Assembly: GCA_037951105.1 (NCBI GenBank)
Contig: JBAMJV010005523.1
Span: forward strand, 108,501-172,500
Source of the DNA: Echinarachnius parma
Taxonomy: Eukaryota; Echinodermata; Echinoidea; Clypeasteroida; Echinarachniidae
Length of the DNA stretch: 64,000 nt
Reading direction: 5' to 3'
Made by a program: the position numbers and the translations under genes. The notes beneath the pieces were generated by a model. The model ran no database searches. It was given only the letters and a program-made list of their open reading frames with translations, and was not told the DNA's origin. Within the stretch, counting starts at the first letter, position 1, and the number at the start of each line of letters is the position of its first letter. Of the stretch, positions 16,677-33,738 are shown one piece after another.

Positions 16677-17011
16677 TCATTCATAAAACATTTGTATATA
16701 TATTGTGTAGGTAAGATATTTCTCCCCTAGTCGCATCAGTCCTGCGGCATCCAGCGCGGAGCGAAGAGATGCACAAGTAGCCGTGATTGATGATTCTTTC
16801 CAGTGCTCCAACATCTGAAGGATTGTTTCTTCATGGCTGGACCCCTTCTGCTTACTAATACGTTTGATCCACTCGTTTGAATCGAGACGAAGCCCAGTGC
16901 ATAGTCTCACCGTGAAGTCATGGTCATGATAGTTGTAACACACACCACGGTAGTCATGGTTAAACGCCATCTCCCTTGCGATCTCGTTCAGGATGTCCCG
17001 TGGAATATCAT
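16677..17011 (-). CDS. Multi-Death gene, last exon (Death domain 3)
   Basis: The acceptor (AATGATTCAG, AG at 17012-17013) leaves two bases, so it joins a phase-1 exon. The domain starts DDIPRDILNEIAREM, continues through LCTGLRLDSNEWIKRI and LQMLEHWKES around the core Trp, and ends LRSALDAAGLMRLGEKYL, all typical of a Death fold. About 11 residues follow, then a TGA stop at 16677. Unlike the exons at 8688 and 11750, there is no donor at the end, so this is a true terminal exon. The best partner upstream is the exon ending at 18088, where G plus AT makes a GAT codon. Confidence 0.8.
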
Positions 17012-17019
17012 CTGAATCA

Positions 17020-18010
17020 TTTGTGGGGTTTTAACACGACATGGTTTTTAGATCATTGTATAATTTATCAAAGTAAGTGAGACACAAGGATGACTGAATT
17101 GATGTATGTAATTATCATTATTCTACAAAGCTTATAAATTACATTTCTTCGAGCTTGTTTATGTTATATTTAATCATTCACACTTTCCTGATCATCGCCG
17201 TAATAGCCACGTATTGCCATGTTCGTGTCATGAAATGAAACGTGGCTATTTAATTGCTATTTCCTGTCACCAGCGTAACAATAAGTGACAGTTACTATAA
17301 GTGTAATTGGCACTTACGTTTAGGCAGCGCTAAATGTTCAAGATGTTCAGAATTCGGCCATTATTTTTAAGTCAGCCATGTTGACTATCGTGGCTAGTGT
17401 AACGGTTATGGGAGTGGCCGGGTGTCTGACTTGGCCATTCTCTGGATATTCCATGGCTCTACAAGACCCGCGTATTACCATGATTACGGAGTGCTTAATA
17501 TGGTGCCGTAAAATAATATTATATTGTTTAAACGGTATACGTCTACTGTTGCTTTACATGGCCCTTTCTCCACATCTTTGCGGTGATGTGTAACTGCGAC
17601 ACTAATGAAGAAAGCAAAGAAAATGAGATTCTACGTGAATCTAACCCGGGAACTCCGGATTGCTCGACCAGTTCCCCCTGACCACTAAGCTAGAAGCTCT
17701 TATGACGGAGATTCTTCCCCAAAACCGATTTGAACGCCTATACTAAATGACTAATTTGAGCTTGAATATAGATAGTAACTATTTATATTGCCCTGGCTGA
17801 CCCAATTACTGCGCTATATGTTGTTGTTGTTGTGCGTTAAAAACAAAGGCTACAATACTAACAATGATTTAGCAGTTCAATGTTCAATGTTCAATGTTCA
17901 ATTTTATTTCATTTTCAACAAGAAGGTACATATATGTACATGAATAAGTCACAACAACATTTGTGAAGTATAAACAATAAATTATAAACATTGGGAATCA
18001 AACATTTGTG
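17020..18010. other. Intron or noncoding stretch
   Basis: This lies between the last exon and the one before it. It contains GTTGTTGTTGTTGTGCGTT-like sequence near 17821 and a short TTCAATG direct repeat near 17877-17900. No exon is seen. Confidence 0.5.
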
Positions 18011-18016
18011 TTTATT
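18011..18016 (-). terminator. Poly(A) signal next to an alternative stop
   Basis: AATAAA on the minus strand begins two bases after the TAA that ends the read-through form of the 18088-18255 exon. It could serve an alternative transcript. The hexamer is common in AT-rich DNA, so chance is possible. Confidence 0.35.
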
Positions 18017-18087
18017 TTAAAAATAAGATACAATTCTTTTGGGGGCATTTAAGTAGTCCACCATTCCAGCGAACCCGGATTCTTTAC

Positions 18088-18255
18088 CTTGCGTCTTGTA
18101 AAGTCGTTTCCCATCGCTGTAAGATAACTCATTTACTTTCGCCGAGAAACTTGCGTCAGGTTTGGAAGGCTTGCCATCAGGTGTTGGAATGAGGATGTCC
18201 TTCACCTGGCAAGCAATATCTCCTACATTGGTTGTGTCTTTCAACTTATCAAGCC
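18088..18255 (-). CDS. Multi-Death gene, linker exon before Death domain 3
   Basis: The acceptor is CCACTCCAACAG; two bases precede 55 codons, and the donor is AAG/GTAAAG. The exon is 168 bp and phase 1 at both ends. The translation contains DKLKDTTNVGDIACQVKDI, then a Pro-rich turn and VNELSYSDGKRLYKTQ. I do not recognise the family. If the donor is skipped, the frame runs 23 codons further to TAA at 18017-18019, directly followed by AATAAA (18016-18011). That would give a shorter protein lacking Death domain 3. Confidence 0.7.
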
Positions 18256-18515
18256 CTGTTGGAGTGGATAGTTAAATAGCATAACATACACATACAACGA
18301 ATATTTTTCATTTGAATAAGAAAGTCTATCAATTAGAAAAATATTATTATGAGTAGTATTTTTTAATGTCATTATTATCCTTTGATTATGAACAGAATTG
18401 AGCAAAACATAACAGCACTATTTCAGTGTATCTCTTGATATGGAAGGGCTACCTGCATGAGAACCATAGTCGTACGCAAAGGGTGTTTTTTTTTTTTGGG
18501 GGGGGGGGGGGGGGG

Positions 18516-19045
18516 TAAAGGGGTAGTACAGTTTTGTAAGGCTGCGCTTTAGTAACCAGACCTGCACAATAACATTACAAACTAATAATTATAACTCCAA
18601 ACTGCTCGAAAAGGTATAGAAAATTAATAACGACTAAGTGAAAAGCATGTTATCATTAAAAAAAAGCCATTCAAACATAGAAGGGCGCTCTCTAAAAAAA
18701 CATTGGTTTTCATACAAAAGTTTGCATGTAATGTTGTGTTGAAAGAATGATTAAATCGAGAGATCATCAACAACTAATTAAAAACACCTTTTGAAAAATG
18801 TTGAAAAAGTGTAAGCATGTTTTTGTATTCTTTTAAATCATCGAATAAATCTGGGCCCCATATTTATTACGATCGGATATATGTGTTGATATTTCAGCCG
18901 TTTCTGAACCGATTTTGATCAAATAAAGTTTATGCTGCCATTAAAGTTGGATGCTCTTTCAAATTTCACACTCAGTTTTTCATTATCTCATCAAAAACGT
19001 ATGTTGTTCAGCGCCCTCTATACCAAAACTGAACTACCCCTTTAA
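18516..19045. mobile_element. TTAA MITE, family i, reverse orientation
   Basis: It starts TAAAGGGGTAGTACAGTTTT and ends AACTGAACTACCCCTTTAA. The body is the reverse complement of the 4391 element in part (GGGCCCCATATTTATT, CAGCCGTTTCTGAACC). It lies in an intron of the multi-Death gene. A T-then-G homopolymer precedes it (about 18486-18515). Confidence 0.75.
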
Positions 19046-19159
19046 ACATCCCATTGACCAAAAACAATAACTGTTTTGGGGAAAAAGGGGATGTCCCCCT
19101 TTACCACTTCGAACACCGGGTCTAGAGTCCACTTTGTATCGGTCTCGCCCTTCATAACC

Positions 19160-31540: not shown

Positions 31541-32154
31541 GCTTTACTTTAATGCAACCGGTACACACATACCTCTTTAGATACATTTAAACAAATCACG
31601 GGAAACAGGGTGACAATGGCTAAATGAGCACAGATTAAAAACAAAAATAATGACCCAATTTCAAAAGTCACAAGAACTTGCGCATGCCTGTACATTGTTG
31701 TGAAACAGCACATGTGGCTGAATGCATTGATTATGGTTTGTGAAACAATGCCTTCCCTGACTTGCAAAGTCCCGCCCCTTAAAATTCGCGATTTCAAAGG
31801 CATGACCAAATGACGTCATTGCAGGAAAAAGTAGCATTCATCTGTTATTATATTAGATTATACTAGAATAAAATTTCCTTTCATTGTCCCTTTTTCCAAG
31901 AAAAAACTCTTATTTGGCTTCTCCGTGAAAAGTCCGTTTTTAAGTCAAATGTTGCGCCATTTTGATGTAGGGGCCACTTCATGTTCTGCAAATCATGAGA
32001 ATTCGGGCCAGTGCAGTTTAACATTTTAAAGCGTCATATTTATAAGAGTTTCTCACATTGCATAGTTAGGCCCATAGCCAGGGGGTCAACTTTTCATCGG
32101 TCTCTGCCATCGTTTACATCGGTCTCGGTCTCGGCCATGATAGGTCTTGGTCAC

Positions 32155-32280
32155 AATCACCCCCCCCCCCCCCCCCCCCCCCATCCCTCCCACTCCCCCA
32201 GACACCCTCAACCAGTGGTCTTGGTCTCGGCATGATTGGTTTGGTCACGAACACCCCCCCCCCCCCCCCCCCCGCCCACC
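32155..32280. repeat. Duplicated poly-C/GGTCTTGG unit
   Basis: Two C homopolymers (about 32160-32182 and 32254-32273) each follow a GGTCTCGG...CATGAT(A/T)GGT phrase, so this is a tandem duplication of about 95 bp. Part of the same repeat family is seen at 19160 and 60720. Confidence 0.6.
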
Positions 32281-32707
32281 CAAAACAACCAAAACAACCA
32301 CACACACATACTTGTAAGAGCCTTCAATCGGGGACATGGTTTTTTCAATGTTATAAACACCTTCAAACGGGAATATGCCCGTTTGTTCAATGTTGTTGGC
32401 TTGTCCCCGGTTTGCTGGTGTGTAAACATGGCAATATGCCCAATTGGCGGGTTTAAAAATACACACACATTCACTTGCATACAAACACACTTATACACCC
32501 ACTATGTCTAAAAACGTGCAAAACGGGCATATAAGGGATATCCTTAAAAAATCAAAATAACATACAGTACAGCCCTTAAGACGATCCCTGAAGCACTATA
32601 CGGGGCTGTTCGGAAACCGGGGATATGCCCGGTTTCCGGAATATCCCCGTTTGCCGGTGTTTAAACTTGCGTGTATCCCCGATTGACGGTCCTTACACAC
32701 GCACGCA

Positions 32708-32755
32708 TGCACACACACACACACACACACACACACACACACACACACACACACC
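32708..32755. repeat. (CA)n microsatellite
   Basis: About 20 CA repeats. Confidence 0.95.
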
Positions 32756-32820
32756 CCTTACACAACTCAACCAGTGGTCTCGGTCTCGGGCCACTTTTGT
32801 ACATTATACGCACCCCCAGT

Positions 32821-32980
32821 AATTGATTGATTGATTGATTGATTGATTGATTGATTGATTGATTGATTGATTGATTGATTGATTGATTGATTGATTGATT
32901 GATTGATTGATTGATTGATTGATTGATTGATTGATTGATTGATTGATTGATTGATTGATTGATTGATTGATTGATTGATG
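32821..32980. repeat. (TTGA)n microsatellite, about 40 units
   Basis: An almost perfect ATTG/TTGA tetranucleotide tract of about 160 bp. The Ile-Asn-Gln-Ser frame on the minus strand is a direct translation of the repeat and not a gene. Confidence 0.97.
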
Positions 32981-33146
32981 GAAAATTACTGATGTTCATT
33001 TGCGCCGTTCCATAGCATAAACAAATTAAAACAAGAGCGTAATCAGCTAATGAGTTGAAAAATTCGTAGAATGGACTCGGGACAAATTCGAAACATTTAA
33101 ATAAAATTAAATACAATATTTACGTAACAATCATGGGTAATCTTAC

Positions 33147-33738
33147 CCGCAATACATTTCTTTATGATGATGTCTTCTTGAACCTTAACGATCTTTTTCT
33201 GATAAGATGCACCCGTCTTCTTCAGGACTTCTACACTTCCGTTCCGCGTGTGCACCAGGACCGAGCCACCCTCCAGTGGAATGATGTCAGTCAAGCGATC
33301 ACCGATGGCGATGTCGACGTCCTCTTCGTAGCAATACGTGTCTGCTCTCATCGCCCGAATCACAAACTTCTCCGAGAAGGATCCTAGCGACGCCATCGCC
33401 TCCGACATCGGACGCGACGAGGTACGTCCTCCGCTTGAGCGACACAGACCGCGTCATGTTGCCCGACAGGTCGTACACGCGCAGGTCGTTCGGTGTATCG
33501 TCGGTGAGGCAGACGAGTTTACCATTCGGAAGCGGCGCTGCGCTGATGATCTTGGTCTCTGATGGTCTTATGATCACGTTTCCTTCGGTGGTGTTTTCGA
33601 GCGAGAAGTTCGCCAGTCTGTAGCGATACGTACGATCTCTCCCAGCGAAGTCCTGCAGGAGGAAGCGTCCATCTGATGAAGCGCACATGAGTGACCACTT
33701 GCTGCCTGGGTTTCTGTTAACTTGCCCCGCGTCGCTCA
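33147..33738 (-). CDS. Multi-Death gene, beta-propeller exon, frameshifted
   Basis: The acceptor is AAAAAATTGCAG (two leading bases) and the donor GCGG/GTAAGA. The first part reads as propeller blades (SKWSLMCASSDGRFLLQDF, then PLPNGKLVCLTDDTPNDL RVYDLSGN). The last part also looks like propeller sequence (LEGGSVLVHTRNGSVEVLKK), but in another frame. The exon is 592 bp; a phase 1-1 exon should be a multiple of 3, so one extra base is implied, probably between 33380 and 33420. This is either a real frameshift or a sequencing error. No upstream exon is found. NHL/TRIM-like propellers bind partners or RNA; the ligand here is unknown. Confidence 0.7.

What the first reader, a model, noticed from the sequence alone, without database searches (positions are those of the whole stretch)
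16677..33738. A protein with a beta-propeller and three Death domains
Nine exons chain without a phase conflict, apart from the one frameshift: propeller, unknown alpha/beta domain, Pro hinge, Death 1, Death 2, linkers with a helix, Death 3. Common Death proteins carry a single C-terminal Death domain. Three in one chain, fused to a propeller sensor-like module, would be an unusual scaffold able to nucleate assemblies.
Basis: partly seen in the sequence, partly recalled or inferred. Interest (0 to 1): 0.85.

Follow-up and report, generated by a model that had tools for sequence, protein, structure and literature searches.

The report
Invertebrate gene with three Death domains
An unidentified animal genome carries a predicted gene whose chain holds three Death domains, the modules that assemble cell-death and immune signalling complexes, behind a strand-rich front end; it looks like one more product of the known invertebrate expansion of such genes.

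Summary
The observation largely holds. Nine minus-strand exons (33738 to 16677) chain in phase. Spliced exons 2-9 pass Pfam's cut-off for Death (E 6.7e-11, three stretches). Singly, Death 3 and Death 2 score E 3.4e-4 to 9.6e-4 and Death 1 only 0.083-0.13, all under the cut-off. Death 1 and 2 resemble each other; Death 3 resembles a neighbouring exon instead. The propeller is not established: no NHL or WD40 match, best hit BBS2_Mid at E 0.026, no detectable blade repeat. Exon 1 carries a frame change. The alpha/beta exon matched no family above cut-off; TRADD-N was tested and not met. Four more Death-like last exons lie in the same orientation, two in each copy of a segmental duplication flanking the gene. 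No relative was found outside the window; whole-genome search did not complete. Best reading: an adaptor or scaffold from a lineage-specific Death expansion, like those described for sea urchin, amphioxus and a sponge. A new variant of a known kind; transcript evidence is missing.

The parts
33147..33738 (-).
   Evidence: Borders and frames; highest coding score of the nine, also the longest (71.4, scored in frame A throughout); best Pfam hit BBS2_Mid E 0.026; no blade self-similarity
23895..24129 (-). Exon 2 (E2): 79-residue domain of unknown family, draft model helix then two strands
   Evidence: no Pfam family above cut-off, best JAG1 ferredoxin-like E 0.1-0.13; AlphaFold pLDDT 48.8, too low to trust
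22991..23046 (-). Exon 3 (E3): 56-nt Pro-rich hinge (NPPPPQESLF); needed to carry phase 2 from E2 to phase 1 at E4
   Evidence: strongest of the eight donors, 11.4; coding score negative, -6.0
22178..22432 (-). Exon 4 (E4): Death domain 1
21322..21642 (-). Exon 5 (E5): Death domain 2
   Evidence: Pfam Death E 9.6e-4, profile 4-84 of 86
20999..21088 (-). Exon 6 (E6): 30-residue linker
   Evidence: coding score 17.1
19683..19922 (-). Exon 7 (E7): linker; no family above cut-off
   Evidence: coding score 43.9; Pfam BAR_4 E 0.039, under cut-off
18088..18255 (-). Exon 8 (E8): linker; its end (RLYKTQ) plus the start of E9 aligns with the uninterrupted start (RVLKTPEDVP) of the neighbouring Death-like exon D62
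   Evidence: Pfam AmiR_N E 0.16, under cut-off
16677..17011 (-). Exon 9 (E9): Death domain 3 and stop codon
61985..62274 (-). Neighbouring Death-like last exon (D62); the open frame ends in a stop at 61981
   Evidence: its own Pfam hit is DUF7533 at E 0.025-0.037, not Death
57688..57977 (-). Neighbouring Death-like last exon (D58)
11754..12043 (-). Neighbouring Death-like last exon (D12), duplicate of D62 (82% aa identity)
8692..8981 (-). Neighbouring Death-like last exon (D9), duplicate of D58 (94% aa identity over 97 codons)

Best explanation
An intracellular adaptor or scaffold gene from a lineage-specific, tandemly duplicated Death-domain family of a marine invertebrate (habitat, lineage and location inferred). 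Shown: three Death-profile matches in exons that chain in frame and end in a stop, in a window with four more Death-like last exons in the same orientation. Inferred: the strand-rich N-terminal part (E1, perhaps E2) senses or binds a ligand or partner; Death 1 and 2 form an adjacent pair and Death 3 follows about 166 residues after the Death 2 exon; on activation each Death domain recruits partners homotypically, so one chain can seed a Death assembly with more than one partner type. Because Death 1 and 2 resemble each other and Death 3 resembles the neighbouring genes' last exons, Death 3 may serve a different partner from the pair. The mostly phase-1 introns fit growth by exon shuffling.
For: Spliced E2-E9 Death E 6.7e-11 with three stretches; E5 and E9 each below 1e-3 alone. 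A profile of the seven Death-like exons finds solved chains of Fas, THOC1, PIDD, RIPK1 and ankyrin first (best E 0.0026); the first 22 of 25 listed rows are Death-domain proteins (membership of some by recall). Exon phases chain, and E3 is required for the frame. The open frame of E2 has no ATG before its acceptor, so E2 needs an upstream exon with a phase-1 donor; E1 supplies one, with a strong donor (9.1) and the highest coding score. Open stretches of the lengths of E2, E4, E5, E7 and E9 are uncommon on this strand outside the exons: 0.0107-0.023 of sampled positions in one frame. The similar exon D62 spans the E8/E9 junction without an intron.
Against: No transcript, no relative outside the window and no start exon. 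E1 is disrupted by a frame change, so it could be a decayed exon, an assembly error or another gene; 9 kb separate E1 from E2. Several splice sites are weak. No single Death exon reaches Pfam's cut-off. The profile of the three Death exons alone gave PIDD at E 0.056 and 0.09 among five PDB rows, the other three not Death proteins; Death 2 and Death 3 singly, and the whole of E2-E9, found no Death domain in the PDB. Of the four neighbouring exons only 2 match Pfam Death, best E 0.17. The AlphaFold model of Death 3 is helical but has pLDDT 43.8. One search's coding model was trained on these exons. The sensing role of E1/E2 has no direct evidence.
Confidence: 0.5

Rival explanations
1. E1 (possibly with upstream exons) is a separate or dead gene, and E2-E9 are a shorter Death gene; or E1 is a decayed exon inside the Death gene. 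The Death scaffold would then have no sensor of this kind.
For: Frame change in E1; weak E1 acceptor -2.1; 9 kb of repeat-containing sequence between E1 and E2.
Against: The open frame of E2 has no start codon before its acceptor, and E2 needs a phase-1 donor; E1 supplies one with the highest coding score; the frame change is the only damage I saw in the nine exons.
Confidence: 0.3
2. E2-E4 is a TRADD-like unit: a TRADD-N (RRM-like) domain, a Pro-rich linker and a Death domain, with further Death domains added; E7-E8 might be a second TRADD-N. It would bind a partner through TRADD-N and receptors through Death. (Compatible with the best explanation in its overall role.)
For: Same order as human TRADD with a Pro-rich linker (TRADD's order recalled; its N-terminal part checked); the best local alignment of E2 to TRADD falls in a helix-strand-strand register; the low-confidence draft of E2 gives helix, strand, strand. 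TRADD-N expansions with Death-like domains and propellers are described in marine invertebrates (PMC8195603).
Against: No match to any TRADD-N family for E2 or E7-E8 at E up to 10, while the NCOA6 control scored 1.4e-52 and 1.1e-17; E2-TRADD is reached by 120 of 2000 shuffles, E2-NCOA6 by 644, E7-E8 to TRADD by 1440 and to NCOA6 by 1285 of 2000; the Ser described as conserved faces Thr in that alignment; no second helix and fourth strand in the E2 draft.
Confidence: 0.12
3. E1 and E2 are the last blades of a larger WD40-type propeller of an Apaf-1-like gene (NB-ARC-WD40-Death-Death) whose upstream half lies outside the window or is lost.
For: WD40 repeats supplemented by double Death repeats are reported among invertebrate Apaf-1 homologs (PMC2246300, passages); E1 and parts of E2 are strand-rich on a crude scale.
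Against: No P-loop pattern GxxxxGK[ST] in an open frame longer than about 40 codons on either strand of the window; no WD40 match; no similarity between E1 and E2.
Confidence: 0.12
4. Chance chain: unrelated open stretches joined by permissive splice rules.
For: Weak splice sites; no external homolog.
Against: Three Death matches on one strand within 6 kb, E 6.7e-11; open stretches of the longer exons' lengths uncommon; similar exons on the same strand alongside.
Confidence: 0.05

Closest known systems
Invertebrate Apaf-1/CED-4 homologs with WD40 repeats supplemented by double Death repeats (PMC2246300)
   Same: Paired Death domains, possibly behind a propeller-type part
   Different: No NB-ARC P-loop found in the window; propeller not proven here; a third, separate Death domain
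TRADD-N / Death-like lineage-specific expansions of marine invertebrates (PMC8195603)
   Same: One to three Death-like domains in some, propellers in some, shuffled architectures, retrotransposon association reported for one clade
   Different: No TRADD-N match here; Death domains, where the paper mostly reports DED in the invertebrate proteins
TRADD
   Same: Small domain, Pro-rich linker, Death domain in that order (order recalled)
   Different: Three Death domains; N-terminal domain not recognisable as TRADD-N
Death domains of Fas, THOC1, PIDD, RIPK1 (PDB)
   Same: Profile similarity
   Different: Each of these proteins has a single Death domain (recalled)

Membership tests
Death domain (PF00531) | Score above Pfam cut-off for the chain, three separate matches | tested here: met
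   E 6.7e-11, 42.6 bits against 22.6, three stretches; each exon alone is below the cut-off
Death domain (PF00531) | Six-helix bundle fold | tested here: inconclusive
   Model of Death 3 helical, five helices, but pLDDT 43.8
Beta-propeller (WD40, NHL) | Profile match to a propeller repeat family | tested here: not met
   No NHL or WD40 match for E1 at E up to 10 (HMMER filters apply); best BBS2_Mid 0.026, under cut-off; also none
Beta-propeller (WD40, NHL) | Internal blade repeats | tested here: inconclusive
TRADD-N | Match to TRADD-N profiles | tested here: not met
   No hit for E2 or E7-E8 at E up to 10; NCOA6 control 1.4e-52 and 1.1e-17
TRADD-N | Conserved Ser in the strand 2-3 turn | tested here: inconclusive
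   Thr faces it in the best E2-TRADD alignment, which is not significant (120 of 2000 shuffles)
Apaf-1-like | NB-ARC P-loop | tested here: not met
   No GxxxxGK[ST] in open frames longer than about 40 codons in the window; the upstream part of the gene may lie elsewhere

The most novel reading that the evidence does not exclude
A one-chain signalling nucleator: a ligand-sensing propeller wired directly to a Death pair plus a third Death domain of a different lineage, so one sensor can seed two kinds of Death assembly without a separate receptor and adaptor, within a fast-duplicating immune locus whose neighbouring genes share the third domain.
Probability: 0.2. Interest if true: 0.65.

Novelty: new variant of a known kind. 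Interest (0 to 1): 0.4.

Why it matters
If the chain is one protein, it is a natural multivalent Death scaffold, useful for asking how Death assemblies are nucleated without a membrane receptor. The flanking duplicates also offer recent copies for studying how invertebrate Death genes diversify.

Tried and rejected
Homolog search: the chain, the seven-exon Death alignment and E1+E2 found nothing at the thresholds used (E 1, 0.01, 1; 7995, 304 and 910 candidates). The collection may be poor in animal proteins (my impression; no call shows it), so this says little.

TRADD-N for E2 and E7-E8: tested, not met. E2 as propeller continuation: no support beyond strand propensity. Apaf-1-like gene: no P-loop. 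Structure models of E2 and Death 3 were too poor for fold search, which I did not run. PDB sequence searches with E2-E9, E1, Death 3 and Death 2 singly: nothing relevant (1, 2, 1 and 0 rows). The four neighbouring Death-like exons as a profile: no PDB hit. Singly, 2 of 4 match Pfam Death, best E 0.17; one (D62) hits DUF7533 at 0.037 instead; as longer open frames none matched Death. So their Death identity rests on similarity to E9 and E4.

dN/dS of the duplicate pairs: D62/D12 0.079/0.037 and D58/D9 0.028/0.058 over 91 and 97 codons; too short to claim selection.

Search for exons upstream of E1: my crude coding and splice scan found no convincing exon in 33.8-54 kb. Its coding model was trained on the exons of this same gene, so their scores there are partly circular; the splice consensus values were recalled, not fitted.

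Poly-A signal: the nearest ATTAAA or AATAAA after the E9 stop lie at 16151 and 15877, more than 500 bases downstream.

Literature: five searches; passages seen in PMC8195603 (its section 8), PMC2246300 and PMC2575513. I saw this exact order described in none of these; I read no paper whole.

Full report
Observation. The minus strand between 33738 and 16677 holds nine exons with AG and GT borders that chain in phase. E2 to E9 read through as 566 residues to a stop at 16677. All introns are phase 1 except E2/E3 (phase 2); E3, only 56 nt, is needed to restore phase 1 at E4. Open stretches of these lengths are uncommon on this strand outside the exons: 0.0107 to 0.023 of sampled positions, in one frame, for the lengths of E2, E4, E5, E7 and E9 and 0.058 for E8, but 0.20 and 0.37 for the short E6 and E3.

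One gene or two. For one gene: phases fit; the open frame of E2 has no start codon before its acceptor and E2 needs a phase-1 donor; E1 offers one with the highest coding score; the end of E8 plus the start of E9 aligns with the uninterrupted start of exon D62. Against: 9 kb of repeat-containing DNA between E1 and E2, the frame change, several weak splice sites, no transcript, no start exon found, no poly-A signal within 500 bases of the stop. The coding scores come from a model trained on these exons and are partly circular.

Surroundings. Four more Death-like last exons lie on the same strand at 62274, 57977, 12043 and 8981. The blocks at roughly 0-12.3 kb and 49-62.4 kb share many pieces at about 70-94% identity, one block on each side of the gene. 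Only 2 of the 4 exons match Pfam Death by themselves, best 0.17, and D62 hits DUF7533 instead, so their identity is by similarity to this gene's exons. Reverse transcriptase (E 7.5e-34) and RNase H (1.4e-15) lie at 39.8-42.4 kb on the plus strand.

Known relatives. PMC2246300 (passages) lists 87 Death matches in sea urchin and 139 in amphioxus against 31 in human, 5 in Nematostella and 5 in Ciona, and Apaf-1 homologs whose WD40 repeats are supplemented by double Death repeats. PMC8195603 (passages and one section) describes marine-invertebrate TRADD-N expansions, in a sponge with 1-3 Death-like domains, in others with propellers, and retrotransposon association in one clade. Against this background three Death domains are a variant, not a new kind. 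I saw this exact order in none of the listings and passages of five literature searches. The animal was not identified; 'marine invertebrate' is inference from the domain content and these papers.

Mechanism. Most likely (0.5) an intracellular adaptor or scaffold: the N-terminal part binds a ligand or partner, and the Death pair and the separate Death 3 recruit partners homotypically. The domains are shown by profile; the recruitment is inferred from the Death family; the sensing step is a guess until E1 and E2 are identified. The rivals about TRADD-N and Apaf-1 overlap with this reading, so the probabilities do not sum to one.

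Noticed in passing
1-12300 and 49000-62420: Segmental duplication in pieces, about 50 kb apart, flanking the gene; each copy carries two Death-like last exons on the minus strand.
   Followed up: partly
39847-42424 (+): Retrotransposon remains with reverse transcriptase and RNase H domains; non-LTR type by my reading.
   Followed up: partly
55602-55527 (-) and 6779-6704 (-): Short conserved exon-like stretch (MRKTAINIKKQWNRLLDQRRVW) with a strong donor in the 55.6 kb copy. Could be a first exon; role unknown.
   Followed up: partly
54350-54111 (-) and 4376-4146 (-): Open stretch after a strong acceptor in one copy; the duplicate has an in-frame stop, so probably not a coding exon.
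   Followed up: partly
34760-35276 and 48334-48872: About 500-bp element matching both directly and inverted, so nearly palindromic, possibly a fold-back element.
   Followed up: no
13174-13756 and 15132-15432: Arrays of a 21-bp unit containing TTCTTGATATCAAGAA, an inverted repeat in itself.
   Followed up: no
4385-4933, 9456-9998, 18516-19045, 25496-26047; shorter at 44841-45140: Dispersed repeat of about 540 bp (about 300 bp in the last copy), 78-94% identical; one copy in the E7/E8 intron and one in the E1/E2 intron.
   Followed up: no
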